Under the pieces are notes generated by a model. The model did not search any database. It worked only from the letters and a program-made list of their open reading frames with translations, and was not told the origin of the DNA. From assembly GCF_030269685.1 (NCBI RefSeq), contig NZ_BSTT01000002.1, positions 310,001 to 374,000 on the forward strand: a DNA stretch of 64,000 bases, written 5' to 3'. Below are positions 14,196 through 27,530 of this stretch, piece after piece. The stretch's first letter is position 1, and each line of letters begins with the position of its first letter. Source of the stretch: Actinomycetospora sp. NBRC 106378. GTDB lineage: Bacteria > Actinomycetota > Actinomycetes > Mycobacteriales > Pseudonocardiaceae. The translations under genes and the position numbers were made by a program.

Positions 14196-15199
14196 GCCGT
14201 ACCTCCGGCCAGGCCTCGCAGGGTGCTGACGACCGTGCCGGTCACCAGCGGGAGCTTGAACGTGTTGCCGCCGAGCGGGCTCCGGACCGGCTCCGCCGCG
14301 TCGAGCTCCGCCGCGATCGCAGCGCGGAACTCGTCGTCGGTGGCCGGGCGCCCGCGCAGGGCCGCCTCGGCGACGGTGGCCCGCCACGGCTTGTGGGCGA
14401 CCCCGCCGAGAGCGATCCGCACGTCGGCGACCGTGCCGTCGCGCACCTCCAGCGCCACCGCGGCGCTCACGAGGGCGAACGCGTACGACGCCCGGTCGCG
14501 CACCTTCCGGTAGGTCGAGTTCCGGACGGCGGGTGTGGGGGCGGGGAGGTCGACCGCGGTGATCAGGTCACCGTGGGCGAGGACGGTGTCGCGCGTCGGG
14601 TCGTCACCGGGCAGCCGGTGGAGCTCGCCGATCGGGATCGTGCGCGCTCCGTCGGGACCGAGCACCTGCACCTGCGCGTCGACGGCGACGAGGGCGACCG
14701 CCAGGTCGGACGGGTGGGTCGCGATGCAGCCGTCGGCCGCGGTGCCCAGGATCGCGTGGTAGCGGGCCCAGCCCTCGCGGGCCGAGCAGCCCTGGGAGAG
14801 GTCGCGCTTGGTGCACGGCGTCGTCGGGTCGGCGAAGTAGACGCACCGGGTGCGCTGCAGCAGGTTCCCGCCGGTCGAGGCCATGTTGCGCAGCTGCCCC
14901 GACGCACCCGCGAGGATCGCCGCGGCGACCGCCGGGTAGCGCTCCCGGACCCGCGGGTCGGCCGCGAGGTCGGAGTTGGGGACGCCCGCACCGATGCGCA
15001 GGCCCCCGTCGGGGAGGTCCTCGATCGCCGTGCTCGTGACGCGGTTGACGTCGACGAGCTGCGACGGCTCGACGACGCCGAGCTTGAGGTGGTCGAGCAG
15101 GTTGGTGCCGCCGGCGAGGAAGCGGGCGTCGGGGTCGGCCGCGAGCGCGGCGACGGCCTCGGACGCCTCGGACGGCCGGGCGTAGGTGAACGGCTTCAT
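14192..15199 (-). CDS. FAD subunit of aldehyde oxidoreductase with probable 4Fe-4S insertion (PaoB-like)
   Basis: A 335-residue FAD subunit. The ATG at 15199 overlaps the 2Fe-2S gene's stop (ATGA) and the C-terminus overlaps the large-subunit start. FAD-binding motifs are FLAGGTNLLDHLK (residues 28-40) and ASTGGNLLQRTRC. Between them and the rest lies a Cys-rich segment with Cys119, Cys129, Cys138 and Cys158 (in TRCVYF, TTPCTK, SQGCSA, DGCIATH). E. coli PaoB and 4-hydroxybenzoyl-CoA reductase beta subunits carry an extra 4Fe-4S cluster in an equivalent insertion; xanthine dehydrogenases do not. The presence of that cluster here is inferred from Cys placement. Confidence 0.9.
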   Translation of the reverse strand: MKPFTYARPSEASEAVAALAADPDARFLAGGTNLLDHLKLGVVEPSQLVDVNRVTSTAIEDLPDGGLRIGAGVPNSDLAADPRVRERYPAVAAAILAGASGQLRNMASTGGNLLQRTRCVYFADPTTPCTKRDLSQGCSAREGWARYHAILGTAADGCIATHPSDLAVALVAVDAQVQVLGPDGARTIPIGELHRLPGDDPTRDTVLAHGDLITAVDLPAPTPAVRNSTYRKVRDRASYAFALVSAAVALEVRDGTVADVRIALGGVAHKPWRATVAEAALRGRPATDDEFRAAIAAELDAAEPVRSPLGGNTFKLPLVTGTVVSTLRGLAGGTA

Positions 15200-15708
15200 G
15201 CGCGGGACGCCTCCTCGACCGCCGACACGATGTTCACGTAGGCCGCGCACCGGCAGAGGTTGCCGCTCATGCGCTCGGCGATCTCCGTGCGGTCCAGCGT
15301 GACCTCGCCGGTGAGGTCGGAGGTCACCGCGCTCGGCATGCCCTGCCGGGCCTCGTCGATCGCCCCGACCGCCGAGCAGATCTGGCCCGGGGTGCAGTAG
15401 CCGCACTGGTAGGCGTCGTTCGCGAGGAACGCCTCGGTCACGGGGTGCAGCTCGCCGTCGGTGGCGAGGCCGTTGGCCGTGACGACGTCCGCGCCGTCCT
15501 TCGCGACGGCGAGCGTCAGGCACGCCAGCACGCGCCGGCCGTCGAGCAGCACGGTGCACGCGCCGCACTGGCCGTGGTCGCAGCCCTTCTTCGTGCTCGT
15601 GACGCCGAGCCGGTCACGCAGGGCGTCCAGGAGGGTCGTACGGGGGTCGACGTCGAGGTCTCGTGGCTCGCCGTCGACCGTGATGGTCAGGGGAATGGTG
15701 GTGGACAT
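15196..15708 (-). CDS. 2Fe-2S subunit of aldehyde oxidoreductase (PaoA-like)
   Basis: A 170-residue subunit and first gene of the operon. The ATG at 15708 follows AGAGGCGGGT. A plant-type ferredoxin domain holds cluster I with Cys43, 48, 51 and 63. A four-helix domain holds cluster II with Cys102, 105, 152 and 154 (QCGYC; LCRC). It passes electrons from the molybdenum site to FAD. No twin-Arg signal is seen, unlike periplasmic PaoA, so a cytoplasmic enzyme is inferred. The physiological acceptor is not encoded nearby. Confidence 0.93.
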   Translation of the reverse strand: MSTTIPLTITVDGEPRDLDVDPRTTLLDALRDRLGVTSTKKGCDHGQCGACTVLLDGRRVLACLTLAVAKDGADVVTANGLATDGELHPVTEAFLANDAYQCGYCTPGQICSAVGAIDEARQGMPSAVTSDLTGEVTLDRTEIAERMSGNLCRCAAYVNIVSAVEEASRA

Positions 15709-15768
15709 ACCCGCCTCTGGTTCACGGGACCGATCCGGTCCGTCACCCACCGTCGCACGTCCCCGCCC

Positions 15769-15801
15769 GCTCAGCCTGGCCGTGACAGTCCCAGGCTGAG
15801 C
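15769..15801. promoter_or_regulatory. 11-bp perfect inverted repeat upstream of the aldehyde oxidoreductase operon
   Basis: GCTCAGCCTGG (15769-15779) and CCAGGCTGAGC (15791-15801) are perfect arms separated by 11 bp. The site is about 60 bp upstream of the 2Fe-2S start and about 150 bp past the stop of the DUF4190 gene on the same strand. It could be an operator for the operon or the terminator of the gene before it. There is no T-run. Confidence 0.45.
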
Positions 15802-15947
15802 GGAAACACGATCTTCTCCGGGCCGCGACGCGCGCGTCCGGTCGCGGGGAATCGCCCGTCCCTCCGCGCCTTGTCGCGCTGAATCACTGCGACGAGGCCG
15901 GCACGGGCTGTCGGAAGGCCGCGACAGGACGGCGGAGCGGCCGTGCC

Positions 15948-16682
15948 CTACTGCTCCCGCGTGATGTCGATCGACGCCTCGGCGCCGTTCACCGCCGTCA
16001 CGGTCGCGCGGAAGCGGGCGGCCTGCCCGTCGAGCGTGCCGTCGCACGTGGAGGTGCCGGCGACCTGGGCGGGCAGGTACCCGGGGCAGATGACGTCGGA
16101 GGCGCCGGTGCGCGTGCCCACCTCGGCGGCGAGCGCGTCGGACGGCAGCTCGGGGCCGTAGTCGCCGTCGGCGACCGCCACGGTGCCCGGCCCGACCGGT
16201 CCGGTGACCGCGGGTGTCGGGCCGGCGGGGGAGGGATCGGCGGGGGAGGGATCGGCGGGGGACGGATCGGCGGGGGCCGAGGCGGCGGGCAGGTCCGGCG
16301 CCGTCGTCGGGACGGAGCGCAGGACCTGCCCGGCGAGGACGGTGACGTACACCGTCGCCGCGATCCCGAGCAGGAGGAAGACGACCGAGAGCACGAGCCC
16401 CGTCGTCGCCAACCCGCGGCCCGGCTGCCCGGTGCGCGCGGTCTGCCGTCGCCCGACGACGCCGAACACGATGCCGAGCGGCGCGAACAGGAACGCGAAG
16501 ACGATCGCGAGGACCGCCATGACGTTCGTGCCGCGCGAGGGCGGGGGAGACCTGGGGGGCGGCCCGGGAGGCCCGGGTGGCATCGGCGCGCCGTAGCCGA
16601 CCGGCGCCCCGGTGCGCGGCGGCACCGGGGGTCCGTAGCCGCCGGGCTGCGGCGCGGAGTACGGGTACTGCGGCTGGCTCAT
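15948..16682 (-). CDS. DUF4190/DUF4333 membrane protein
   Basis: A 244-residue protein. The first 50 residues are Pro/Gly/Tyr-rich. Two membrane helices (MAVLAIVFAFLFAPLGIVFG; GLVLSVVFLLLGIAATVYV) with an interhelix GRRQTARTGQPGRGLA match DUF4190. A PADPS repeat linker (15-bp units in the DNA near 16225-16285) leads to a C-terminal domain with Cys pair (VICPGY; STCDGT) that fits DUF4333. Such proteins are common actinobacterial envelope proteins without known biochemistry. It is transcribed toward the aldehyde oxidoreductase operon, about 240 bp upstream of it. Confidence 0.8.
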   Translation of the reverse strand: MSQPQYPYSAPQPGGYGPPVPPRTGAPVGYGAPMPPGPPGPPPRSPPPSRGTNVMAVLAIVFAFLFAPLGIVFGVVGRRQTARTGQPGRGLATTGLVLSVVFLLLGIAATVYVTVLAGQVLRSVPTTAPDLPAASAPADPSPADPSPADPSPAGPTPAVTGPVGPGTVAVADGDYGPELPSDALAAEVGTRTGASDVICPGYLPAQVAGTSTCDGTLDGQAARFRATVTAVNGAEASIDITREQ

Positions 16683-16814
16683 CGCGGCGTCCTCACCGGG
16701 GCAGGAGCGGGTGTGGCCGGACGCTAGTGCGGGGCGGATCCCCCGGGGCAGCGCTTCCGGCGAGGTGCCGTAGTGCCGCCCGGCGAATGCCGTAGTCCCG
16801 GGACGGACGAGCGC

Positions 16815-17981
16815 TCAGCGCACCGCACCCGCCGCGCGTAGCGCCGCGATGCGGTCGTCGGCGTACCCGAGCGCGCGCAGCACCTCCCCGGTGTGTTCGC
16901 CGACCGCCGCCGCCGGCGCTCCCGCCGTCGTCGGCGTCCGGGAGAAGCGCGGGGCCGGCGCCGGCTGCACGACCCCGCCCACGGCGGCGAACGTCCCGCG
17001 GGCGGCGAGGTGTGGGTGCGAGGGGGCCTCGCTCATCTCCAGCACCGGCGCGACACACGCGTCGGTGCCCTCGAACAGGGCCGCCCACTCGTCCCGGGTC
17101 CGGGTGGCGAACACCTCGGCGAGACGGGCGCTCGAGGCGGGCCAGGTCGACGGGTCCCACTGGTCGGGGAGGTCGTCCAGCCCGAGCCGCTCGGTCAGGG
17201 CCGCGTAGAACCGCGGTTCCATCGCCGCGACGGAGACGAACCGACCGTCGGCGCACGCGTAGACGTCGTAGAAGTGCGCCCCGCCGTCGTTCGCGTTCGA
17301 CTGCCGCGCCTCGGTCCAGGCACCCCGCCCGAGCAGCTCGTACATCATCGTCATGAGGTACGCGGCGCCGTCGACCATCGCCGCGTCGACCACCTGGCCG
17401 ACCCCGCTGCGCCGCGCGTCCACGAGCGCCGCCGCGATGCCGAGGGCCAGCACGAGCCCGCCGCCGGCGAAGTCGCCGAGCACGTTGAGGGGCGGTGCCG
17501 GCGGGGCGCCCGCTCGTCCGAGCGGAGCCAGGGCGCCCGCCACGGCGATGTAGTTGAGGTCGTGCCCCACGGCCTGCGCGAGCGGCCCGTCCTGCCCCCA
17601 CCCGGTGAGCCGGCCGTACACCAGGGCCGGGTTCCGGCCGAGGACGACGTCGGGGCCGAGCCCCAGCCGTTCCATGACGCCGGGCCGGAAGCCCTCGACG
17701 AGCGCGTCGGCGGAGTCGAGCAGGGCGAGCGCGACGGCGAGCCCGTCCGGGTGCTTGAGGTCCACGGCGACCGATCGGCGGCCGCGGCCCATGATGCCGT
17801 CGGTCAGGGCGTCGACCCCACCGCCGGACGGCCCCGCGCTCGCGCGGTCGAGGCGCACGACCTCGGCCCCGAGGTCGGCGAGCACCATCGCGCAGAAGGG
17901 CGCGGGGCCGATGCCCGCGACCTCCACGACACGCACCCCGGCCAGCGGCCCTTTCGAGTTCCCGAAGCTCGACCCCGACAT
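16815..17981 (-). CDS. Alpha-methylacyl-CoA racemase-like CoA-transferase family III protein
   Basis: A 388-residue CaiB/BaiF-fold enzyme. ATG at 17981 starts it; the frame upstream is antisense to the next gene. Two catalytic residues of the mycobacterial racemase (His126 and Asp156, 30 apart) are matched by His140 (VGHDLNYIAV) and Asp170 (LGDFAGGG), also 30 apart. VAAMEPRFYAAL is close to the racemase's Glu-containing motif. This points to epimerisation of 2-methylacyl-CoA thioesters, not CoA transfer. It is divergent from the acyl-CoA operon starting at 18081, which encodes a ligase able to make such thioesters, so it probably belongs to the same pathway. Confidence 0.88.
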   Translation of the reverse strand: MSGSSFGNSKGPLAGVRVVEVAGIGPAPFCAMVLADLGAEVVRLDRASAGPSGGGVDALTDGIMGRGRRSVAVDLKHPDGLAVALALLDSADALVEGFRPGVMERLGLGPDVVLGRNPALVYGRLTGWGQDGPLAQAVGHDLNYIAVAGALAPLGRAGAPPAPPLNVLGDFAGGGLVLALGIAAALVDARRSGVGQVVDAAMVDGAAYLMTMMYELLGRGAWTEARQSNANDGGAHFYDVYACADGRFVSVAAMEPRFYAALTERLGLDDLPDQWDPSTWPASSARLAEVFATRTRDEWAALFEGTDACVAPVLEMSEAPSHPHLAARGTFAAVGGVVQPAPAPRFSRTPTTAGAPAAAVGEHTGEVLRALGYADDRIAALRAAGAVR

Positions 17982-18034
17982 GTCGAAGGACCCTAGACCG
18001 CGCCGGGACCCGCGGCCTACAGTCCGGGGGCGAG

Positions 18035-18050
18035 CTTCGAGATATCGAAG
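18035..18050. promoter_or_regulatory. Candidate operator CTTCGA-N4-TCGAAG
   Basis: CTTCGAGATATCGAAG is a dyad with perfect 6-bp arms, located between the divergent racemase and transporter genes, 30 bp before the transporter start. A half-site GTCGAAGG lies near the racemase start. The IclR regulator at the end of the operon is the natural candidate to bind here. Binding is inference. Confidence 0.45.
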
Positions 18051-18080
18051 ACGACGACGGGATTCCGAAGGCGGCGGCCA

Positions 18081-19421
18081 ATGGCGGGCACCACAGCGGC
18101 ACGGGGCGAGCAGCGACGGGTCGCCGCCGCCTGCATCATCGGCAACGTCCTCGAGTACTTCGACTTCGCGCTCTACGGCTTCTTCGCCGTCGTCGTCGGG
18201 AAGCAGTTCTTCCCCGAGGCGAGCCCGAGCTCGCAGCTGCTGTCCTCGCTCGCCGTCTTCGGGGTCGCGTTCCTCATGCGCCCGCTCGGCGGACTGGTCT
18301 TCGGCATCATCGGCGACCGCGCCGGGCGCCGGCTCTCGCTGTCGATCAGCGTCGCCGTGATGGGAGTGGCCACCGCGCTGATCGGCGTGCTGCCCACGTA
18401 CGCGACGATCGGGGTCGCGGCGCCGGTGCTCCTCGTGCTGCTGCGCTGCGTCCAGGGTGTGTCGGTCGGCGGCGAGTGGGGCGCGAGCTCGGCCTACCTG
18501 ATCGAGACCGCCCCGCCGGGCCGGCGCGGCATCCGGGGCAGCTTCCCCTCGATGGCGGCGGCGTTCGGCCTGGTCGGTGGCAGCCTGCTCGCGCTCGTGC
18601 TCAGCCTGCTCCTGTCCACCGAGCAGCTCGGCAGCTGGGGCTGGCGCATCCCGTTCCTCGTCGCCGCGCCGCTCGGCCTGTTCGGCGTGTGGATCCGGCG
18701 CCGGCTCGAGGACACCCCGGTCTTCCAGGAGCTGGAGCGGCGCGCCGACCTGCCGCGGGCCCGGGTGCGCGACGCGTTCCGGCGCGACCAGGCCCGGGCG
18801 ATCCTCGTGACGTTCTGCTTCTCCTGGATCTGCGGCGTCGGCCTCTACTTCCTCGGCTCCTACGTCATCAACTTCCTGACGGCGACGGTGAAGGTCCCGC
18901 AGCTCACCGCGGTCCTGCTGACCGGTGCCGGCCTGCTCGTCTACGCGGCCCTGTGCCCGATCGCCGGCCGGCTCTCCGACCGCTTCGGTCGTCGCCGCAC
19001 CGTGCTGTTCGGCTGTCTCGGGCACACTGTCCTCGGGATCCCGATGTTCCTGCTCATGAGCACCGGTGACCCGGTCGCGATCATCGTCGCCCTGCTCGTG
19101 TTCGGCGTGATCCAGGCGCCGATCAACGCGAACACCTCGCTGATCCTCATCGAGCTGTTCCCGGCCGCGACCCGGCTGACCAGCGGCTCGGTCGGCTTCA
19201 ACCTCGGCGTCGGCGCCCCGTCGGGCTTCGGGCCACTCGTGGCCGCGGCCCTCGTCGTCGGGACCGGGCTGACCTGGGCGCCCGGCATCTTCCTGGCCGC
19301 CGTCGCCGCGATCTGCGGGCTGGTGCTCGTCGCGCTGCTGCCCGAGACGGCAGGACGGGACCTGATGGCCGAGCACGACGCGACGAAGACCGCCGCCGTC
19401 GTCGGGGAGTCCCGCGGATGA
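18081..19421 (+). CDS. MHS-family MFS transporter (carboxylate:H+ symporter)
   Basis: A 446-residue, 12-helix transporter of the metabolite:H+ symporter type (ShiA/ProP/KgtP relatives). The N-terminus has GNVLEYFDFALYGFFA, loop 2-3 has RPLGGLVFGIIGDRAGRR, and helix 4 has RCVQGVSVGGEWGAS, all hallmark motifs. Family substrates are carboxylates, betaines and aromatic acids. It is the first gene of the operon and overlaps the ligase gene by ATGA, so import is tied to activation. No strong ribosome site is visible before the ATG at 18081. Confidence 0.92.
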   Translation: MAGTTAARGEQRRVAAACIIGNVLEYFDFALYGFFAVVVGKQFFPEASPSSQLLSSLAVFGVAFLMRPLGGLVFGIIGDRAGRRLSLSISVAVMGVATALIGVLPTYATIGVAAPVLLVLLRCVQGVSVGGEWGASSAYLIETAPPGRRGIRGSFPSMAAAFGLVGGSLLALVLSLLLSTEQLGSWGWRIPFLVAAPLGLFGVWIRRRLEDTPVFQELERRADLPRARVRDAFRRDQARAILVTFCFSWICGVGLYFLGSYVINFLTATVKVPQLTAVLLTGAGLLVYAALCPIAGRLSDRFGRRRTVLFGCLGHTVLGIPMFLLMSTGDPVAIIVALLVFGVIQAPINANTSLILIELFPAATRLTSGSVGFNLGVGAPSGFGPLVAAALVVGTGLTWAPGIFLAAVAAICGLVLVALLPETAGRDLMAEHDATKTAAVVGESRG

Positions 19422-20947
19422 CCGCCGCCACGCTCCCGTCCCTGGTGGCCGAGCTCGCCGCCCGCACCCCGGATGCGCCGGCCCTGGTCGCGGGGGAGCG
19501 GCGGCTCAGCTTCGGTGAGCTCGACGAGGCGGCCCGCCGCGCGGCGACGGTGCTGGCGGACGCGGGGGAGAGCGTCGGCCTCCTGGCACCCAACCGGGCC
19601 GACTGGCTCGTCGTCGCCCTCGGGGCGATGCGCGCGGGCGCCCGGGTCGACGCGTTCAACACCTGGTCCAAGGCCTGGGACCTCGAGCACCTGCTCGCCG
19701 CCTCCGCGTGCCGCGTGCTCGTGACGGTCGAGCGCGCCCGCTCCACCGACACCCTCGGCGAACTGCGCCGCCTGGTGCCGGAGGTGCTCGACGGCGGTCG
19801 CTCGGAGCGGTTCCCGGCGCTCGAGCGCGTCATCGTGCTCGGCGAGCAGTGGGACGGCCTGCTGGCGACCGCCGGGCCGACCGACGCCGATCACAGCACG
19901 CCCGACGACGTCGCCTTCGTCCTCTACACGTCCGGCTCCACCAGCCGCCCGAAGGCCGTACCGCTGTGTCAGGGCGACATGCTGGCCAACGGCGCCTCGA
20001 TCGGCGACCGCATGGGGCTCTCGGCCGCGGACCGGGTGTGGCTGGGCTCCCCGCTGTTCTGGAGCTTCGGGTCGGCGAACGCCCTGCCCGCCACGTGGAC
20101 GCACGGGGCGTGCCTCGTGGTGCAGGAGCACTTCGCCCCCGCGGAGGCGGCCGACCTGCTCGCCGCCGAGCGCTGCACCGCGGCCTACCTGCTGCCGACC
20201 ATGGTCGACGCCCTGATCCCGCAGGCCGGGCGCGTGCGCGCGGTGACGAGCCTGCGCACGGGGCTGACGATCGGACGGCCCGAGGAGGTCGAGCGCGCGG
20301 TCCGCGAGCTCGACGTCCCGGAGCTGTGCAACGTCTACGGCTCCACCGAGGTCTACGGCAACTGCTGCGTCACCCCGCACGACGCACCGCTGGAGCTGCG
20401 CCTGGTCAGCCAGGGCCCGCCGCTCGACGGGGTCGAGGTGCGGGCCGTCGATCCCGACGGCCGGGTGCTCCCGACCGGTGAGGCCGGCGAGCTGCAGGTC
20501 CGCGGGCACGTGATGCCCGGCTACCTCGGCGCCCCCGAGGCGACGGCGGCGGTGATGACGGCCGACGGCTGGTTCCGCACCGGGGACCGCCTGCTCGTGC
20601 GCGACGACGGGTACGTCGAGTTCGGCGCCCGCCTCACCGACATGATCAAGACGTCGGGCATCAACGTCGCCCCGGCCGAGGTGGAGAGCTACCTCGCGGG
20701 CCACCCGGCGGTCGCCGAGGTCGCGGTCGTCGGCGCCCCGCACCCGAGCCGGGGAGAGGTCGTGATCGCGTTCGTCACCGTGACCGAGGGGGTCGACGGG
20801 GAGACGCTGCAGGCGTGGTGCCGGGAGGGCATCGCCGGTTACAAGGTGCCGTTCCGGGTCGTGGTGCTGCCCGAGCTGCCGCGCACCGTGACCGGGAAGC
20901 TCACCCGGTCGACGCTCGTCGAGCTCGCCGTCGAGGAGGCCCGATGA
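19418..20947 (+). CDS. Acyl-CoA ligase, ANL superfamily
   Basis: A 509-residue adenylate-forming enzyme. P-loop motif YTSGSTSRPKAVPL is near residues 170-183, A5 NVYGSTEVYG near 306, the hinge region YVEFGARLTDMIKTSGINV near 405, and the catalytic Lys in PRTVTGKLTR near the C-terminus. It makes an acyl-AMP and then an acyl-CoA thioester. The substrate is not predictable from motifs; context suggests the imported carboxylate. It starts by ATGA overlap with the transporter and ends by ATGA overlap with the cyclase gene. Confidence 0.9.
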   Translation: MTAATLPSLVAELAARTPDAPALVAGERRLSFGELDEAARRAATVLADAGESVGLLAPNRADWLVVALGAMRAGARVDAFNTWSKAWDLEHLLAASACRVLVTVERARSTDTLGELRRLVPEVLDGGRSERFPALERVIVLGEQWDGLLATAGPTDADHSTPDDVAFVLYTSGSTSRPKAVPLCQGDMLANGASIGDRMGLSAADRVWLGSPLFWSFGSANALPATWTHGACLVVQEHFAPAEAADLLAAERCTAAYLLPTMVDALIPQAGRVRAVTSLRTGLTIGRPEEVERAVRELDVPELCNVYGSTEVYGNCCVTPHDAPLELRLVSQGPPLDGVEVRAVDPDGRVLPTGEAGELQVRGHVMPGYLGAPEATAAVMTADGWFRTGDRLLVRDDGYVEFGARLTDMIKTSGINVAPAEVESYLAGHPAVAEVAVVGAPHPSRGEVVIAFVTVTEGVDGETLQAWCREGIAGYKVPFRVVVLPELPRTVTGKLTRSTLVELAVEEAR

Positions 20948-21786
20948 CCAACTGGGGACGCTGGGGTGCCGACGACCAGGCGGGCGCCCTGAACCTCGTC
21001 GACGCGCGGGCGACGCTGGCCGCCGCCGGCCTGGTGACCGAGGGCCGCACCATCTCGTTGGCCCAGCCCGTCGGACCCGGCGCCGGGGTGCCGCCGCACC
21101 GGCGCTCGCCGCAGCGGTTCATGGACCGCGACGCCGGCGACTACGCGGCCGGGGCGCGCTCGCCCGACGGCTTCCGGTTCGCCGAGGACACCGTCCAGTT
21201 CGGCACCCACTCCGGGACCCACCTCGACGCCCTGGCCCACACGTGGAGCGGCGACGAGCTCTACAACGGCCACCCCGCGGCCTCGACGCGCTCGACGAAG
21301 GGCGCGAGCCGCTGCGGCGCCGAGCACCTGCGTCCGGTCGCGGCCCGCGGCGTCCTCGTCGACCTCGGGGTGCTGCCCGCCCGGCACGCCGTGGGCCGCG
21401 CGGAGCTCGAGGCGGCCTACCCGGGCGGCGTGCCGCAGCCGGGCGACGTGGTGCTGATCCGCACCGGGTGGTGGGAGTCGCGCGGCGGACGGGCCGACTA
21501 CTTCGACGACGAGCCCGGCCCCGACGACGAGGCGGCGCGCTGGCTCGCCGCGCACGACGTCGCGACGGTCGGCGCCGACAACTACGCCGTCGAGGTGCAG
21601 CCGTCGGCCGCGGGCACGTTCCCGGTGCACCTGGAGCTGATGCACCGCCACGGGGTGCCGCTGCTGGAGAACCTCGACCTGTCCGTGCTCGCCACCACCG
21701 GCCGCACCACGTTCCTCGTCGTGGTCGCGCCGATCCCGCTCGCCGGCTCGACGGCGGGCCCGGTCGCCCCGGTGGCGATCCTGTGA
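20944..21786 (+). CDS. Cyclase-family (kynurenine formamidase-like) metal hydrolase
   Basis: A 280-residue protein. HSGTHLDALAH near residues 89-99 is the metal-binding signature of the cyclase/KynB family (Pfam Cyclase), and DNYAVEVQPS near 216 and HLELMHRHGVPLLENL near 230 are typical of its longer members. The family hydrolyses or forms cyclic amides, lactones and isatin-like rings. It overlaps the ligase by ATGA and the CoA-transferase by GTGA. A ring-opening or hydrolytic step in the operon's pathway is inferred. Confidence 0.88.
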   Translation: MTNWGRWGADDQAGALNLVDARATLAAAGLVTEGRTISLAQPVGPGAGVPPHRRSPQRFMDRDAGDYAAGARSPDGFRFAEDTVQFGTHSGTHLDALAHTWSGDELYNGHPAASTRSTKGASRCGAEHLRPVAARGVLVDLGVLPARHAVGRAELEAAYPGGVPQPGDVVLIRTGWWESRGGRADYFDDEPGPDDEAARWLAAHDVATVGADNYAVEVQPSAAGTFPVHLELMHRHGVPLLENLDLSVLATTGRTTFLVVVAPIPLAGSTAGPVAPVAIL

Positions 21787-22928
21787 GGCTCTCGTCCGGT
21801 CTCCAGGCGGGTGACCTCGTCGTCGCCGGGCAGGGCGTGGGGGAGCCGACCCCGCTGCTGCGGGCCCTGCTCGACGACCCGGCACCGGTGGATCTGTTCG
21901 TCGGGCTGTCCCACTCCGACGTGCTGCGCGGACCGGTCCCGGCCCCGGTGCGGCTCGTGTCGTTCGGGGCACTCGGACCGCTGCGCGACCACGACGTCGA
22001 GGTCCTGCCGGTGCACTTCCTCGACCTCCCGCGCCAGCTGCGCCACCGCCCGCGGAACCGGCTCGTCCTGCTCGTGCAGGTCTCGCCCCCCGACGCCGAC
22101 GGGCGGCACCGCTTCTCGGCCGCCGTCGACCACACCGCGGAGCTCGTCGACGACGCCGACGTGATCGTCGCCGAGGTCAACGACGCCCTCCCCACCACGA
22201 TCGGCCCGACCCTGGACCCCGCGCGGATCGACGAGGCGGTCGCGACGTCGCGGCCCCTGCCGACCGTGCCGCGCGCCGAGCCGACCGACGTCGCCCGGGC
22301 GATCGCCGCGCACGCGGCGGCGCTGGTCGGCGACGGCGCCGCGCTGCAGCTCGGGCTCGGCGCCGTCCCGCAGCTGATGGGGGAGGCGCTCGCCGACCGG
22401 ACGGGGCTGCGGGTGCGCTCCACGCTCGTCGGCGACTGGCTGCTCGCCCTCGACCCGGCGGAGACGGTGCTCAGCGAGGCCGCCGGCTCCCCGGAGCTCT
22501 ACGCCCACGTCGCCGCGCACGCCCGCATGGTCGGCGTGCCCGAGGTCAACACCCCGGTCGACGGCCTGGTCGCCGTGAACTCCGCCCTCGAGGTCGACCT
22601 GAGCGGCGCGGTCAACGCCGAGGCCACCGCGCGCGGGTACGTCGGCGGGATCGGCGGCCAGGCCGACTTCCTGCGCGCCGCACAACGCAGCCCCGGCGGG
22701 CTCGCCGTCGTCATCCTCCCCGCGACCGCCGAGCGTGGCCGCCGCTCCCGCATCGTCCCGACCCTGCACGCGGGCACCGTGACCACCCCGCGCTCGTGCG
22801 TCGACGTCGTCGTCACCGAGCACGGCGTCGCCGACCTGCGCGGGCGCGGGCTGCGCGAGCGGGCCCGGGCGCTCGCCGCGATCGCCGCGCCCCACCACCG
22901 CGACACCCTCGGACAGGAGGCCGCGTGA
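21783..22928 (+). CDS. Acetyl-CoA hydrolase/CoA-transferase family I protein
   Basis: A 381-residue protein starting at GTG 21783 within a GTGA overlap. AALQLGLGAVPQLMGEAL is the N-domain motif, VAVNSALEVDLSGAVNAE resembles the catalytic-Glu region of 4-hydroxybutyrate CoA-transferases, and GGIGGQADFLRAAQRSPGG plus VVTEHGVADLRGR are C-domain hallmarks. It is slightly short for the family (about 430), mainly through a trimmed N-terminus. It likely moves CoA between the pathway acid and acetyl-CoA or succinyl-CoA, or hydrolyses a thioester. Confidence 0.88.
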   Translation: MRLSSGLQAGDLVVAGQGVGEPTPLLRALLDDPAPVDLFVGLSHSDVLRGPVPAPVRLVSFGALGPLRDHDVEVLPVHFLDLPRQLRHRPRNRLVLLVQVSPPDADGRHRFSAAVDHTAELVDDADVIVAEVNDALPTTIGPTLDPARIDEAVATSRPLPTVPRAEPTDVARAIAAHAAALVGDGAALQLGLGAVPQLMGEALADRTGLRVRSTLVGDWLLALDPAETVLSEAAGSPELYAHVAAHARMVGVPEVNTPVDGLVAVNSALEVDLSGAVNAEATARGYVGGIGGQADFLRAAQRSPGGLAVVILPATAERGRRSRIVPTLHAGTVTTPRSCVDVVVTEHGVADLRGRGLRERARALAAIAAPHHRDTLGQEAA

Positions 22929-23887
22929 CCCCGCTCGCCGCGCTCGAGGCGTTCCTGCACGCCCCGGGCCGGGTGGTCGACGTCCGGCGCACCGGCGTCG
23001 GGCGCTCCCGCCAGAACTGGCTGTTCGACCTCCGGCACGACGACGGGTCGCGCGAGCCGCTGATCCTGCGCTCCGATCCCGACGGCGGGTTGGTCGAGAC
23101 CGACCGTGCGCTCGAGTTCGCGCTGCTGGGCGCGCTCGTCGACGCCGACCTGCCGACCCCGCCCCCGCACTCCCTCGACGCCGACGGGACGGCGTTCGGC
23201 AGCCCGTCGCTGATGATGGGCCGGCTGCCCGGGACCTGCGACTACCGGGTGCTCACCGGGGACCGGCCCGAGGCGGAGCGGGTGGCGATCGCGGTGGCCC
23301 TGTGCGAGCTGCTCGCCCGTGTGCACGCCACGGACTGGAAGGCCCTCGGCCTCGGCGAGCTGTTCACCGACCCCGGCGAGCAGGCGGCGCGCCACGAGCT
23401 GGACCGGTGGGAGGGCATCCTGCGCCGCGACCGGCTCGCCGCCCACCCGGAGCTCGAGCTCGCCCTCGTCGCCCTGCGCGAGCGCGCCCCGCGCTCCCGG
23501 CGCACCGTGCTCGTGCACGCCGACTTCAAGCCCGGCAACGTGCTGCTCCGTGGCGTCGAGATCACCGCCCTGCTCGACTGGGAGCTCGCGCACCTCGGGG
23601 ATCCGCTCGAGGATCTCGGGTGGGTCACGCAACCGCTGCGCGCCGGCGAGCACGCCATCCCCGGGCGCTGGGAGGCCGCCGACCTGATCGGCCACTACGA
23701 GGAGGTCACCGGCGAGCCGGTCGACCGCGAGGCGCTGCGCTGGTGGGTCACGTTCTCGACGTTCAAGACCGCCGTGATGCAGGTCAGCGGGCTGCGCGCG
23801 TTCCTCGAGGGCCGCAGCGACGAGCCCTACCGCCCGCACCGTCGCGTGCTCGGGTCCCTGCTCGACGACGTGAACCGGGGGTTCTGA
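22925..23887 (+). CDS. APH-like phosphotransferase of the acyl-CoA catabolism type
   Basis: A 320-residue protein starting at GTG 22925 (GTGA overlap). The kinase catalytic loop VHADFKPGNVLL is near residue 198 and the metal-binding LLDWELAHLGDPLEDLGW near 217-234. These belong to the aminoglycoside-phosphotransferase-like subfamily found next to acyl-CoA dehydrogenases and related to the kinase domain of human ACAD10/11, which phosphorylates 4-hydroxyacyl-CoAs. A resistance role is unlikely. A role in a hydroxyacyl intermediate is inference from family and context. Confidence 0.85.
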   Translation: MTPLAALEAFLHAPGRVVDVRRTGVGRSRQNWLFDLRHDDGSREPLILRSDPDGGLVETDRALEFALLGALVDADLPTPPPHSLDADGTAFGSPSLMMGRLPGTCDYRVLTGDRPEAERVAIAVALCELLARVHATDWKALGLGELFTDPGEQAARHELDRWEGILRRDRLAAHPELELALVALRERAPRSRRTVLVHADFKPGNVLLRGVEITALLDWELAHLGDPLEDLGWVTQPLRAGEHAIPGRWEAADLIGHYEEVTGEPVDREALRWWVTFSTFKTAVMQVSGLRAFLEGRSDEPYRPHRRVLGSLLDDVNRGF

Positions 23888-24237
23888 TGCGCCCGACCAT
23901 CGACGACCAGCTCGGCGGCGCCGACCGGCTGCTGGACCTCGTCGCCGCCGACCCCGGTCTCGGCGACGGCTCGCGGGAGCTCCTCGTCAACGCCCGTCGG
24001 CTGCTGCGCACGGTGCGCCGCTCGTGGGACCGGGTCGTGCCGTTCGCGGTGGCCGACAACGCCCGGATGGCGGAGCTGTTGGGCGAGGCCGCCCCACCCG
24101 ACGTCGGGAAGGGGCCGCTGGAGCGGCAGGAGGAACTGCGCGCGGCGCTCGCCGCCGCGATCCCGGATCTCGACGACGGGGCCCGGGCCGAGATCGGCCG
24201 CTACCTGCGCGAGCGCGTGGAGGAGGACCCGGCATGA
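23887..24237 (+). CDS. DUF6285-like small partner of the phosphotransferase
   Basis: A 116-residue helical protein; its ATG shares one base with the previous stop (TGATG). The text LLVNARRLLRTVRRSW and NARMAELLG resembles the small DUF6285 proteins that regularly follow APH-like phosphotransferases in actinobacterial and proteobacterial catabolic operons. The family match is from memory and moderate. It has no visible catalytic motif and may be an accessory subunit. Confidence 0.65.
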   Translation: MRPTIDDQLGGADRLLDLVAADPGLGDGSRELLVNARRLLRTVRRSWDRVVPFAVADNARMAELLGEAAPPDVGKGPLERQEELRAALAAAIPDLDDGARAEIGRYLRERVEEDPA

Positions 24238-25361
24238 CCCAGGCAGGACCCGACGCGTGGTTCGACGAGCAGTTCCCGCTCTCGCCCGCCGACGACCACA
24301 TGATCCACCAGACCCCGGACCCGGTCCGGGTGGTGTGGACCGGCGACCCGCGGGCCTACGAGCGGTACTGGGTGATCTGCCACGACCCGGCCGGCGAGGT
24401 GCTCGTCGCGACCGGCGGCAGCTTCTACCCGAACCTCGACCGCGCCGAGGCGTACGCCGTCGTCAACCACGGCGGGCGGCACACCGCGGTCCGCAGCTTC
24501 CGGCGGATCGGGGCGGACCGCACCGACCTGCGGGTGGGCCCGATCGCCCCGCGCATCGTGCGCGGGCTGCGGGAGTGGCGCTTCGTGCTGGAGCCCAACG
24601 CGTGGGGGATCAGCTGGGACCTCCGCTTCGTCGACACCACCCGGCAGGTGTTCCGGGAGCCGCTCTCGAACTCCGCGCACGGCACCCCGCCGGGGCGACG
24701 GGGCGACGTGACGGCGGGCTTCGAGGGGTTCGGCGCCGTGACCGGCTGGGTGGAGGTCGACGGCCGGCGCCTCGAGATGCCCGAGGGGTCGGTCGGGACG
24801 CGCGACCGGCACTGGGGGACCGGGCGCGGGGTCGGCGGGCCCACGATGTCGCTGGGCGGGCGCCTGCACGTGGGCACCAACGGCAACGCCTTCGTCTCCT
24901 TCGGCGACTGGACGCTGTGGGGCGACCGCGTCTTCTACCCCTTCGGCTCGTCGACCCCGGGCGCGACGAAGGTGCTCAAGCCGTCGCGGCGACTGCGCTT
25001 CGAGCCGGACACCCAGGTGTTCGCCGAGGGGATCGTCGACTACCGCTTCGCCGACGGCTCCACCCGGCAGCTGCACTACGAACGGATCGGGCAGCAGACC
25101 GCGTACCTGCGGTGCGGGATGTACGGCGGCACCCCCGACGGGGACATCCACCAGGGCTCCTACGACGGGCCGGACCACACCGAGGGCGAGACCTACGACG
25201 TGAACGACCCGGCGACCCGGGTGTTCGTCCGCGGGCTCGACGAGCACCTGTGCCGGGTGACCACCGACGACGGACGGTCCGCGATCGGCGTCTACCAGGC
25301 GATCGACCCGGCGGCGTTCGAGCAGTGCACGGCCGGGCGGCCCGGCTGGGCCTTCCTGTGA
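24234..25361 (+). CDS. CrtC/lipocalin-like protein of unknown function
   Basis: A 375-residue protein with an ATGA overlap to the previous gene. It is Trp/Gly/Tyr-rich and beta-strand-rich, with GTRDRHWGTGRG, WTLWGDRVFYPFG and WRFVLEPNAWGISWDLRF. This resembles hydroxyneurosporene synthase (CrtC)/tocopherol cyclase-like double-lipocalin proteins often found in CoA-dependent catabolic operons (DUF7064/7065-like). It probably binds a hydrophobic substrate. Its chemistry, if any, is unknown. It is the last structural gene before the regulator. Confidence 0.7.
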   Translation: MTQAGPDAWFDEQFPLSPADDHMIHQTPDPVRVVWTGDPRAYERYWVICHDPAGEVLVATGGSFYPNLDRAEAYAVVNHGGRHTAVRSFRRIGADRTDLRVGPIAPRIVRGLREWRFVLEPNAWGISWDLRFVDTTRQVFREPLSNSAHGTPPGRRGDVTAGFEGFGAVTGWVEVDGRRLEMPEGSVGTRDRHWGTGRGVGGPTMSLGGRLHVGTNGNAFVSFGDWTLWGDRVFYPFGSSTPGATKVLKPSRRLRFEPDTQVFAEGIVDYRFADGSTRQLHYERIGQQTAYLRCGMYGGTPDGDIHQGSYDGPDHTEGETYDVNDPATRVFVRGLDEHLCRVTTDDGRSAIGVYQAIDPAAFEQCTAGRPGWAFL

Positions 25362-25373
25362 TGATGTCGCACC

Positions 25374-26147
25374 GTGGCGGGTGTTGAGCAGAACCGGGAT
25401 CGCTACGCGCGGACGTTCGACGTCCTCGAGCTGCTCGCCGGCCACCCCGAGGGCCTGACCGTCACGGAGATCGCGACGCGCCTCGAGCTCCCGGTGTCGT
25501 CGAGCCACAACCTCCTGGGGCGGATGGCGGCCAGCGAGGTCGTCTCGGTCTCCGACGGGCCGCGCTACTCGCTCGGCCCACGGGCGGTGCGGCTCGGCAT
25601 CCGCATCGCCGACGGCCTCGAGGTGCGCGCCCTCGCCCGGCGGCACCTGCAGGACCTCGCCCGGACGACGGGTGAGGACGTCTACCTCGCGATGCGCCTG
25701 GGGCGCCGGATCACCTACGTCGAGCGGGTCGCCGGGTCGCGGCCGGTCACCGTCGAGATCCGGTTGGGCCAGGACCTCTACCTGCACGCGACGGCGGTCG
25801 GGAAGCTCTTCGCCGCAGCCGACGACGGGTTGCGCCGCCGGCTCTGGTCCCGGGAACGCCCGCGGCTCACCGAGCACACCCTGGTCGGCACGGAGGAGCT
25901 CACCGCGGAGCTCGACGCCATCCGCGAGGCCGGGGTGGCCGTCAGCCGCGAGGAGGCGATCATCGGCGTCGTCGGCATCGCGGTCGGGGTGCACGACGCG
26001 CACGGCGAGCTCGTCGCCGCCGTGCACGTGTCCGCCCTGCGACCCGCGCTGCCGCCGGACGCCGAGACGTCGCTGACCACCGCCGCGCGCGGCTGCGCCG
26101 TGGCGATCGAGCGGGACCTCGGCCGGAGCCATCCCGTCACCCGATAG
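25374..26147 (+). CDS. IclR-family regulator
   Basis: A 257-residue regulator starting at GTG 25374, 12 bp after the operon. The N-terminal winged helix has LTVTEIATRLELPVSSSHNLLGRM; the effector domain has YVERVAGSRPV, LYLHATAVGKLF and the end motif VAISREE-like VAVSREEAIIGVVGIAVGV. IclR proteins bind an aromatic or carboxylic effector and control adjacent catabolic genes. It probably regulates the 18081 operon and the divergent racemase, perhaps via the dyad at 18035. Confidence 0.92.
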   Translation: MAGVEQNRDRYARTFDVLELLAGHPEGLTVTEIATRLELPVSSSHNLLGRMAASEVVSVSDGPRYSLGPRAVRLGIRIADGLEVRALARRHLQDLARTTGEDVYLAMRLGRRITYVERVAGSRPVTVEIRLGQDLYLHATAVGKLFAAADDGLRRRLWSRERPRLTEHTLVGTEELTAELDAIREAGVAVSREEAIIGVVGIAVGVHDAHGELVAAVHVSALRPALPPDAETSLTTAARGCAVAIERDLGRSHPVTR

Positions 26148-26223
26148 CACTACTGTTCGTAACACCGGAGCAACGGGCTCCGACATCCGCGGCATCAGGC
26201 GTCGGAGTCGGGGAGCGGGCAGC

Positions 26224-26712
26224 GTGGGCACGGTGGAGAAGGTCTGGTCGGGGATCGGCGCGGCGGTGTTCGGTCTCGTCGCCGTCAGCGCGTTGACCCC
26301 CACGTCGAGCGCCACCGCCGCCCTCGCCGCGGACGCCTCCACCGAGAGCCCCAGCCTGAGCACCGTCACCGTGACCGACGTGCTCGACGGCGACACCGTC
26401 ATGGCCGGTCCCCAGGTGATCCACGTGCTCGGCATCGACTCCTGCCCGGTGTCGACCCCCGGCGGGGCGGCGGCGAAGCAGATGGCCGAGTCGATGCTGG
26501 GCAGGCGGCAGATCACGCTGCGCACCGAGCCGGGCGTCGACCGGGACGCCTCCGGGCGCCTGCTGCGCCGCATCGACCTGGCCGACGGCGGCGACTACGG
26601 CTCGTTCATGGTGCCGTTCGCGCACACCGGGGCGGACGCCTCCAACGGGGTGAGCCGGCAGTACCTGGCGAGCCTGCGCGAGAACGACGGCAACGGCCGC
26701 TCCTGCGGCTGA
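26224..26712 (+). CDS. Secreted SNase-like protein with altered active site
   Basis: A 162-residue protein. It has a signal-like N-terminus (VWSGIGAAVFGLVAVSALTP ending near ALAADA) and a thermonuclease-like fold: VTVTDVLDGDTVMAGP, VLGIDSCPV, AAKQMAESMLGRRQITLR and DRDASGRLLRRI. The calcium-site DGDT is kept. Compared with staphylococcal nuclease, Arg35 aligns with His and Glu43 with Pro; only Arg87 (in SGRLL) is kept. The protein is therefore unlikely to be an ordinary nuclease. GTG at 26224 follows GGGGAGCGGGCAGC. Confidence 0.75.
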   Translation: MGTVEKVWSGIGAAVFGLVAVSALTPTSSATAALAADASTESPSLSTVTVTDVLDGDTVMAGPQVIHVLGIDSCPVSTPGGAAAKQMAESMLGRRQITLRTEPGVDRDASGRLLRRIDLADGGDYGSFMVPFAHTGADASNGVSRQYLASLRENDGNGRSCG

Positions 26713-26814
26713 GCCGGTTCCATCGGGATCGCCGAAGGTTGCATTCGGGAGACGTCGTCGGTGGTGCCGGTCCGGCGCTGGAAAGCGCCCGCATCGCGTG
26801 ACACGCTCGTATGC

Positions 26815-26949
26815 ATGGATATCGGACGCGTCCAGCGTCGCTTCACCGCAGAACCCGTCGAGAGCCCCGTCCCCGCCGCCCCCGAGGCGCCCGTGGAACA
26901 CGTGGAGCACCTCGAGGCCGAGACCGTCACGGCCGACGCACGCCCGTGA
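26815..26949 (+). CDS. 44-residue micro-ORF coupled to the next gene
   Basis: ATG at 26815 encodes a 44-residue acidic peptide (MDIGRVQRRFTAEPVESPVP, then an APEAPVEHVEHLEAE tail). Its stop overlaps the next start as GTGA, so the two are probably translationally coupled. An ATG at 26811 in the frame of the next gene also exists. No ribosome site is obvious. It has no known homologue in my memory; it may be a leader peptide or a small partner protein. Confidence 0.5.
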   Translation: MDIGRVQRRFTAEPVESPVPAAPEAPVEHVEHLEAETVTADARP

Positions 26950-27530
26950 CCGCCCCGCACCGCGTGACGGCGGTGCCGGACGTCCCGGCCGCCGTCCTCG
27001 GCTGGCGCACGTGGCGCGTCGGCCGGCGGGCGCAGCAGCGTCACGCGCTCTTCTCTCCCCTCACCGGGACCCCGTGGCCGGCCGCCCGCCCGATGGTCGC
27101 CGCCTGCGCGAGCCCGCGACACACCCCGCCCGGGGACACCTGCCCGTGCGGGCTGTACGCGGTCGCCGACACGACCACGCTCGGGTGGAGCCCGTCCGAC
27201 CACGAGGTCCTCGGCGTCGTCGCGCTGTGGGGCGACGTCGTCGAGGGGCAGTACGGCTGGCGGGCCTCCCACGCCTACCCCCGCTTCCTCGTGGCGGGAC
27301 CGGGCATCTCGACCGAGCAGCGGGCCGCCCTGTCCCGCCGCTACGGCGTTCCGGTGCACCTCGTCGGGTCGGGGCCACGCGAACTCGCGCGCCGGCTCGA
27401 GCGGTCCGACGCCGACGCCCTGCGCCACGCCGACCCGGCCGACGTGACCGACCTGCTGGCGGCGGCCTGCCGTCGTCCGGACGTCCCGGCCCCGCGCCGG
27501 CGGACCTGGCGGTCCTGGCTCACGTCGTGA
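26946..27530 (+). CDS. Cys-rich protein with C-x5-H...C-x-CG signature, unknown function
   Basis: A 194-residue protein starting at GTG 26946 by overlap. It has an N-terminal GWRTWRV, a segment ACASPRHTPPGDTCPCGLYA that could bind zinc, and the conserved-looking LWGDVVEGQYGWRASHAYP and LSRRYGVPVHL. This arrangement recurs in small actinobacterial hypothetical proteins (impression from memory). Its C-terminus overlaps the convergent gene by 11 bp. Function unknown. Confidence 0.7.
   Translation: MTAPHRVTAVPDVPAAVLGWRTWRVGRRAQQRHALFSPLTGTPWPAARPMVAACASPRHTPPGDTCPCGLYAVADTTTLGWSPSDHEVLGVVALWGDVVEGQYGWRASHAYPRFLVAGPGISTEQRAALSRRYGVPVHLVGSGPRELARRLERSDADALRHADPADVTDLLAAACRRPDVPAPRRRTWRSWLTS

What the first reader, a model, noticed from the sequence alone, without database searches (positions are those of the whole stretch)
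16815..26147. Fully coupled acyl-CoA catabolic operon of unknown substrate
Seven genes from 18081 to 25361 overlap their neighbours by 1 or 4 bp (ATGA, ATGA, GTGA, GTGA, TGATG, ATGA), then an IclR regulator follows after 12 bp. A divergent gene encodes a racemase with His and Asp 30 residues apart, as in alpha-methylacyl-CoA racemase. Together: uptake, CoA activation, racemisation of a 2-methyl branch, a cyclase-family hydrolase, a CoA-transferase, an ACAD10/11-like kinase, a DUF6285-like partner and a lipocalin-like protein. No acyl-CoA dehydrogenase or hydratase is inside. I do not know a described pathway with this set. A 2-methyl or 2-aryl carboxylic acid is a reasonable guess.
Basis: partly seen in the sequence, partly recalled or inferred. 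Interest (0 to 1): 0.75.

Follow-up and report, generated by a model that had tools for sequence, protein, structure and literature searches.

The report
Mobile operon for ATP-driven dehydration
A nine-gene block in an actinobacterium appears to activate an unknown acid with coenzyme A and to strip water from an alcohol group by first attaching a phosphate (kinase) and then removing it (lyase), a chemistry known from a few other pathways.

Summary
In detail: nine genes (16815-26147), six tight overlaps, IclR after 12 bp, divergent alpha-methylacyl-CoA racemase. The block is one inserted unit: four same-genus genomes have the same flanks without it. Its six-gene core (ligase, cyclase, CoA-transferase-like, kinase, small protein, 'lipocalin-like') is in order in 10 of 13 close loci, window included.

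The 'lipocalin-like' protein is Rv3169 family and matches the solved 25-phosphosteroid lyase (E 5.7e-22 alone; family profile E 1e-95 over nearly full length). Its neighbour is a kinase of the ACAD11/Rv3168 superfamily. A kinase gene lies near 28 of 30 lyase loci against 0 of 27 control loci. Most likely this is a kinase-phospholyase pair for ATP-dependent dehydration, which would explain the missing acyl-CoA dehydrogenase. The CoA-transferase-like protein lacks the catalytic glutamate. Substrate unknown; a tertiary or gamma hydroxy acid, perhaps alpha-methyl branched, is my inference. New variant of a known kind, patchily and probably horizontally spread, not found described in ten searches of the held library.

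The parts
16815..17981 (-). RAC, alpha-methylacyl-CoA racemase-type protein of CoA-transferase family III (divergent)
   Evidence: PF02515 272 bits; MCR of M. tuberculosis 8rmw / 1x74 E 1e-112 with GHD and GDF motifs kept; H140/D170
18036..18049 (.). TTCG-N6-CGAA inverted repeat in the RAC-MFS gap, weak candidate for an IclR operator
   Evidence: such a repeat occurs three times in window 15000-27000, so one site may be chance; the related CGAA-N6-TTCG repeat stands in the promoter gap of 8 related loci but is absent from the window
18081..19421 (+). MFS transporter, metabolite:H+ symporter type
   Evidence: PF07690 151 bits; TIGR00883 368 bits, below its cut-off of 443
19418..20947 (+). LIG, AMP-forming acyl-CoA ligase
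   Evidence: PF00501 225 bits and PF13193 75 bits; motifs located
20944..21786 (+). CYC, cyclase-family (PF04199) presumed metal-dependent hydrolase; lactonase role inferred
   Evidence: PF04199 81 bits; 5ibz E 2.4e-39; HxGTHxD in 12 of 12 aligned rows, window included
21783..22928 (+). CAT, relative of 4-hydroxybutyrate CoA-transferase without the catalytic Glu (Thr214)
   Evidence: 3d3u E 3.9e-49; Glu column of 3gk7, 3d3u and 3eh7 is Thr here, Thr in 11 of 11 rows, window included
22925..23887 (+). APH, small-molecule kinase of the ACAD11/Rv3168 superfamily
   Evidence: PF01636 99 bits; alone: 9o56 1.3e-17, 3dxp 4e-17, ACAD11 4.6e-13; family profile: 3ats 5e-64, 9fsg 4.9e-57, ACAD11 8e-40; D200, N205, D218 invariant in 20 rows
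23887..24237 (+). small partner between kinase and lyase, borderline DUF6285
   Evidence: PF19802 17.7 bits, below cut-off; same position in 12 other loci; relation to DUF6285 inconclusive
24234..25361 (+). LYASE, Rv3169-family protein, homologue of 25-phosphosteroid lyase
   Evidence: NF053593 295.6 bits, cut-off 150; 9fzn E 5.7e-22 as single sequence; profile E 1e-95 over 2-355 of 362
25374..26147 (+). IclR-family regulator
   Evidence: PF01614 124 bits, PF09339 41 bits

Best explanation
The block is an acquired catabolic unit whose core step is ATP-dependent dehydration. A carboxylic acid enters by the MFS symporter and is activated by the AMP-forming ligase. The kinase, with its small partner, phosphorylates a hydroxyl that ordinary beta-oxidation enzymes cannot remove (tertiary or gamma), and the Rv3169/25-PSL-type lyase eliminates the phosphate to give an unsaturated acyl-CoA that housekeeping beta-oxidation finishes. 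The cyclase-family hydrolase probably opens a lactone or other cyclic form; the Glu-less CoA-transferase-like protein probably hydrolyses or cleaves a CoA intermediate rather than transferring CoA; the racemase sets the configuration of an alpha-methyl branch; IclR controls the set. Shown by sequence: the homologies, the recurrent pairing, the lost glutamate, the empty site. Inferred: that the pair acts in sequence here, that the substrate is a CoA ester, the roles of CYC and CAT, and the substrate class.
For: Lyase homology to 25-PSL: single sequence E 5.7e-22, profile E 1e-95 over 2-355 of 362. Kinase homology to Rv3168, 9fsg and ACAD11. Kinase ORF in 28 of 30 lyase loci with about 1.5 kb of flank, against 0 of 27 control loci. 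Conserved six-gene core. A second gene set with P450, kinase, lyase, ligase and a racemase at about 50% identity on three Rhodococcus plasmids looked at. Empty site in four same-genus genomes. Precedent: 25-HSK phosphorylates a tertiary alcohol, and extracts turn the phosphoester into the alkene (PMC8449060, parts 1-2 of 5 and passages); LvaA/LvaC and ACAD10/11 remove a 4-hydroxyl of acyl-CoA by phosphorylation and elimination (PMC12440821, passages).
Against: No structure could be predicted, so the active site was compared in sequence only. Two of 30 lyase loci (L012, L031) show no kinase in the stretch held. The kinase alone matches 9o56, 3dxp and ACAD11 much better than 9fsg or Rv3168, and in the tree it lies with kinases that stand beside DUF6285 genes rather than with most lyase-neighbour kinases, though with support under the tool's star threshold and without Rv3168, 25-HSK or LvaA in the tree; so kinase and lyase need not act on one substrate as in the steroid case. 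The own genome has no match at E 1e-50 to the flavin monooxygenase or Zn-dehydrogenase that accompany the core in relatives. The kinase profile was built partly from loci that were then counted. No growth or expression data.
Confidence: 0.68

Rival explanations
1. A gamma-lactone / 4-hydroxy acid pathway: CYC opens the lactone, the ligase makes the 4-hydroxyacyl-CoA, kinase plus small protein act as LvaA/LvaB do, and the lyase replaces the acyl-CoA-dehydrogenase-like LvaC. This is the narrower form of the best explanation.
For: Kinase alone nearer to ACAD11 than to 9fsg or Rv3168 and on the side of DUF6285-neighbour kinases in the tree; CAT nearest to 4-hydroxybutyrate CoA-transferases; no ACAD inside the block.
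Against: The small protein is not a clear DUF6285; CAT lacks the Glu expected for CoA transfer; that a PF04199 protein acts as a lactonase was not shown.
Confidence: 0.3
2. A pathway for cyclic terpenoid-like ketones: oxygenases make a lactone whose hydrolysis gives a tertiary hydroxy acid, which the block dehydrates.
For: Baeyer-Villiger fingerprint (recalled motif) in L035; flavoproteins of L035 and L055 match the PtlE model at 167 and 239 bits, far below its cut-off of 1100; P450 beside the lyase on three Rhodococcus plasmids; racemase fits an alpha-methyl branch.
Against: The strict fingerprint was found only in L035 and the overlapping L059 among 23 stretches scanned, the window included.
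Confidence: 0.25
3. One reading: catabolism of a 2-methyl or 2-aryl carboxylic acid with racemisation as the key step; kinase and lipocalin-like gene are accessory.
For: Racemase strongly MCR-like and inside the inserted unit.
Against: Racemase at over 60% identity in 5 of 13 close loci, kinase, small protein and lyase in 13 of 13.
Confidence: 0.12
4. The kinase is a drug-inactivating phosphotransferase and the rest is unrelated.
For: PF01636 membership and weak NCBIfam drug-kinase hits.
Against: Those NCBIfam hits score 26.3 bits or less against cut-offs of 205 to 520; recurrent company of a lyase homologue.
Confidence: 0.02

Closest known systems
25-hydroxysteroid kinase / 25-phosphosteroid lyase of Sterolibacterium denitrificans
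   Same: Lyase homologous over nearly full length; two-step phosphorylation and elimination with a tertiary alcohol in the known case (PMC8449060, PMC11061730, passages). A kinase entry, 9fsg, which I believe but did not show to be 25-HSK, matches the kinase family.
   Different: In PMC8449060 the lyase gene was still unknown and no candidate lay near the kinase gene; here the two are in one operon. Here a CoA ligase, a hydrolase and a racemase are in the same unit, and the kinase alone is closer to ACAD11 than to 9fsg.
lva operon of Pseudomonas putida and ACAD10/ACAD11
   Same: Kinase superfamily; ligase and kinase in one operon; removal of a hydroxyl through a phosphoester (PMC12440821, passages).
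   Different: The elimination partner is a 25-PSL homologue, not an acyl-CoA dehydrogenase; the small partner is not a clear DUF6285 (that LvaB is of DUF6285 is recalled).
Rv3168-Rv3169 of Mycobacterium tuberculosis
   Same: Adjacent operon genes under one regulator, Rv3167c (PMC5340868, passages); the Rv3169 family model fits our lyase; 3ats, which I recall as Rv3168, is the best profile match of the kinases.
   Different: No ligase-cyclase-CAT core mentioned in the passages read; TetR-type, not IclR-type, regulator; substrate unknown.
alpha-methylacyl-CoA racemase MCR
   Same: E 1e-112, GHD and GDF motifs.
   Different: Activity untested; role in this operon unknown.
4-hydroxybutyrate CoA-transferase
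   Same: Sequence homology E 3.9e-49.
   Different: Catalytic Glu replaced by Thr in 11 of 11 rows.

Membership tests
25-PSL / Rv3169 family phospholyase | Curated family model passed | tested here: met
   NF053593 295.6 bits against 150
25-PSL / Rv3169 family phospholyase | Homology to solved 25-PSL over nearly full length, with shared invariant residues | tested here: met
   Profile E 1e-95 over 2-355 of 362; the 18 columns invariant in A1 read by eye as kept in 9fzn in the printed alignment
25-PSL / Rv3169 family phospholyase | Eliminates phosphate from a phosphoester | not testable with these tools
   needs an assay
ACAD10-11/LvaA/25-HSK kinase superfamily | Catalytic Asp, Asn and metal-binding Asp of the APH fold (recalled) | tested here: met
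   D200, N205, D218 invariant in 20 rows
lva-type 4-hydroxyacyl-CoA operon | DUF6285 partner (LvaB; the link is recalled) | tested here: inconclusive
   17.7 bits, cut-off 28.1; hhalign 0.7% with 13 rows, 55% with 18 rows; no DUF6285 at E 0.001 in the own genome
lva-type 4-hydroxyacyl-CoA operon | LvaC-like acyl-CoA dehydrogenase in the operon | tested here: not met
   no such protein among the nine
alpha-methylacyl-CoA racemase | MCR-type His and Asp in context (roles recalled) | tested here: met
class I 4-hydroxybutyrate CoA-transferase | Catalytic glutamate (Glu238 in 3gk7 numbering; role recalled) | tested here: not met
   Thr in 11 of 11 rows, window included
PF04199 cyclase | HxGTHxD metal motif (recalled) | tested here: met
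   12 of 12 rows, window included

The most novel reading that the evidence does not exclude
A transferable ATP-driven dehydration pathway in which an ACAD11/LvaA-like kinase is wired to a 25-PSL-type phospholyase in place of an acyl-CoA dehydrogenase, with a Glu-less CoA-transferase relative recruited as a hydrolase or C-C cleaving enzyme, opening degradation of hydroxy acids whose tertiary or gamma hydroxyl blocks beta-oxidation. The same pairing, annotated as 'phosphotransferase family protein' plus 'hypothetical protein', would be a widespread unrecognised catabolic module, Rv3168-Rv3169 included.
Probability: 0.45. Interest if true: 0.78.

Novelty: new variant of a known kind. Interest (0 to 1): 0.62.

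Why it matters
It turns a protein family with a curated but functionless name (Rv3169 family), annotated 'hypothetical protein' in the records looked at, into a predicted phospholyase that works with the neighbouring kinase. It gives a testable reaction for many gene clusters, and suggests how bacteria deal with hydroxyls that stop beta-oxidation. It also shows a Glu-less branch of CoA-transferase relatives in a catabolic setting.

Tried and rejected
Substrate hunt: flanking genes of relatives (ACAD, flavin monooxygenase, thiolase, ChsH2-type OB-fold, crotonase and CaiB in L053 and L059; Zn-dehydrogenase in 7 of 10 core genomes; AroQ-like gene in L037, L039 and L045; a second CaiB in L039, L040, L045, L046 and L057) and the plasmid P450 did not name a substrate. 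Drug resistance rejected. A plain CoA-transferase role for CAT held unlikely because the catalytic Glu is absent. A clear DUF6285 assignment not upheld. The Baeyer-Villiger idea is kept only as a rival. The CGAA-N6-TTCG repeat of the relatives is absent from the window (0 matches, 0.28 expected); the window has only TTCG-N6-CGAA, three times between 15000 and 27000, so the operator is a weak call. My first profile comparisons failed because my input file was empty; done properly. Papers: ten searches gave no description of this operon among the titles, abstract starts and passages I saw; DUF6285 gave no paper. Of the 14 papers naming Rv3169 I read passages of one. Rand 2017 and the IpdAB paper were not held, so what I say of LvaB and IpdAB is recalled.
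Full report
Observation. The window is G000:C2:310001-374000 of a 6.3-Mb genome. Family scans name racemase-type CoA-transferase III, MFS, ligase, cyclase, acetyl-CoA hydrolase/transferase C-terminal domain, APH kinase, Rv3169 family and IclR; the small protein reaches DUF6285 only at 17.7 bits (cut-off 28.1).

One unit. In four same-genus genomes (G267, G388, G344, G360) the flanks are syntenic: 11, 11, 10 and 12 of 13 flank genes asked for were matched, and none of the nine block genes is listed at E 1e-10. Of the two genes that border the block in the window, the left one was not matched in G344 and the right one lies inverted in G360. In three further genomes (G401, G487, G434) only the NmrA-like gene was matched in the stretch taken, so they do not bear on the point; 7 of the 13 genomes were fetched. 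The 17 same-genus genomes listed, three of them under 85% complete, have no lyase match at E 1e-40.

Conservation. Lyase matches at E under 1e-100 occur in 7 of 298 genomes of the order, in 4 of 297 of the family (limit 1e-40) and in 1 of 396 of the phylum (limit 1e-40), the own genome counted in each; the samples overlap and the tool's first look may miss some. Named carriers are Pseudonocardia endophytica, Sciscionella marina, Prauserella muralis and, at 54%, a Rhodospirillaceae MAG. G343 and G320 coincide in coordinates with the Sciscionella and Prauserella records, so the own family is probably Pseudonocardiaceae (inference). In plasmids 22 of 72,556 records match, two at about 75% (Rhodococcus sp. 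ZPP pRZP2 and R. opacus pRop44186_a). Among 13 loci with a lyase at 73% or more (window, L035-L040, L045-L047, L053, L054, L057), the six-gene core in order is found in 10 (window, L035, L036, L037, L038, L039, L045, L046, L053, L057; in L035 CAT is split over two frames), while L054 has a cut ligase, L040 lacks CAT in the stretch and has CYC divergent with IclR between, and L047 shows only kinase, small protein and lyase in 21 kb. Besides the window, MFS at 67% or more is in L035, L036, L037, L039, L045 and L057 and in fragments in L046; IclR at 40% or more is in L036, L037, L039, L040, L045, L046, L053 and L057; the racemase at over 60% is in L035, L036, L037 and L053.

What the eighth gene is. 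The 'lipocalin-like' protein passes the Rv3169-family model (295.6 bits, cut-off 150). Alone it matches PDB 9fzn/9g2i and 9g4c, named 25-phosphosteroid lyase, at E 5.7e-22 over its residues 14-203. A profile of 22 relatives matches at E 1e-95 over residues 2-355 of 362. The 18 columns invariant in that alignment are kept in the lyase as I read the printed alignment by eye. The neighbouring kinase alone matches 9o56, 3dxp and ACAD11 best, 9fsg and 3ats weakly; the family profile matches 3ats, 9fsg, 9o56, 3dxp and ACAD11. I recall 3ats as Rv3168 and believe 9fsg (379 aa) to be 25-HSK; no call showed either.

Pairing. A kinase-profile ORF is found in 28 of 30 lyase loci with about 1.5 kb of flank (L005-L034, the 30 loci that one search returned out of its longer list of matches), missing in L012 and L031, and in 0 of 27 control loci (L068-L094, from crotonase, flavoprotein and dehydrogenase searches), two of which themselves touch a lyase gene. 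The kinase profile was built partly from some of these loci, so the count is not fully independent. On plasmids the pair stands with P450, ligase, enoyl-CoA hydratase and PDR/VanB reductase (L055, L056, L063), with P450, OB-fold protein and aldehyde dehydrogenase (L066), and between two kinases in Variovorax (L065); in these records the lyase gene is annotated 'hypothetical protein'. In a tree of 54 kinases the 13 operon kinases and the one of L048 form a set with the three P450-variant ones (92/86) and, with 13 kinases that stand beside true DUF6285 genes and that of L066, a larger set (94/84); 20 other lyase-neighbour kinases lie outside, three more (L064, L065) in between. Neither of these two supports reaches the tool's star threshold, the root is a midpoint, and LvaA, Rv3168 and 25-HSK are not in the tree. 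True DUF6285 genes sit by a kinase in 14 of 14 loci and by a lyase in 0 of 14. My reading, an inference, is that the operon joins an ACAD11/LvaA-side kinase to a 25-PSL-side lyase.

Known chemistry. 25-HSK phosphorylates tertiary C25 alcohols, and extracts of S. denitrificans turn the phosphoester into the alkene; the authors reported no lyase candidate near the kinase gene (PMC8449060, parts 1-2 of 5 and passages). PMC11061730 (passages) names a putative 25-PSL. LvaA/LvaC and ACAD10/11 remove the hydroxyl of 4-hydroxyacyl-CoA through a phosphoester (PMC12440821, passages; PMC11342911 seen only in the listing). Rv3168-Rv3169 is an operon repressed by Rv3167c (PMC5340868, passages).

The CoA-transferase-like protein. 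The Glu column of the three solved relatives printed (Glu238 of 3gk7 by my count) is Thr214 here, and Thr in 11 of 11 aligned rows, window included. Among 31 rows (window and 30 fetched loci of the order, L112 being the window's own gene) the column is Gly 15, Thr 6, Asp 6, Glu 4; Thr only in operon members. It is thus unlikely to be an ordinary CoA-transferase. I recall that IpdAB, a ring-cleaving hydrolase, is a class I relative without this Glu: a lead and not a test.

Accessory genes and regulation. L053 and L059 share ACAD, flavin monooxygenase, thiolase, OB-fold protein, crotonase and CaiB at 56-80% identity. The Zn-dehydrogenase is in 7 of 10 core genomes. The own genome has neither that monooxygenase nor that dehydrogenase at E 1e-50; its best crotonase is 56% identical. 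CGAA-N6-TTCG repeats stand in the gap upstream of the ligase in eight loci (L035, L036, L037, L039, L040, L045, L046, L057), in six of them (not L045, L057) with a further half site 10 bp on; of 19 such repeats in 318,780 bases 12 are in these gaps. L038 and L053 have none, those of L047 and L054 lie elsewhere, and the window has none. The window's RAC-MFS gap has one TTCG-N6-CGAA at 18036, a weak operator candidate.

Verdict. Its most likely core is kinase-phospholyase dehydration of a hydroxylated acyl-CoA. Substrate, reaction order and the jobs of CYC and CAT are inferred. Ten paper searches in the held library gave no description of this operon in what I saw; most subscription papers are not held.

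Noticed in passing
L117-L129, L131-L137, L140 (CAT homologues): A wide branch of 4-hydroxybutyrate CoA-transferase relatives has Gly or Asp in place of the catalytic Glu (15 Gly and 6 Asp of 31 rows).
   Followed up: partly
L065 8426-12611 (Variovorax sp. SRS16 plasmid 3): Lyase gene flanked on both sides by a kinase with a small gene after it, near ligases and ABC uptake genes.
   Followed up: no
L066 5772-14065 (Rhodococcus oxybenzonivorans pRB98): AMP-binding protein, P450, OB-fold protein, lyase, kinase, small protein and aldehyde dehydrogenase in one row.
   Followed up: no
L039 3407-3940, L045 14542-15063, L037 16492-16995: A type II 3-dehydroquinate dehydratase-like gene sits near the operon in three loci (family match for the L039 copy).
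   Followed up: partly
window 12120-15568: Molybdenum hydroxylase-type genes (MoCoBD and FAD-binding subunits) near the insertion; found at the same place in four same-genus genomes.
   Followed up: partly
window 26224-26712: Small protein without a Pfam family just downstream of the insertion, present in four same-genus genomes, inverted in one.
   Followed up: no
L035 8423-9597; L054 10816-11478; L046 11214-11695: Decaying copies: CAT split over two frames, ligase cut short, MFS in fragments.
   Followed up: no
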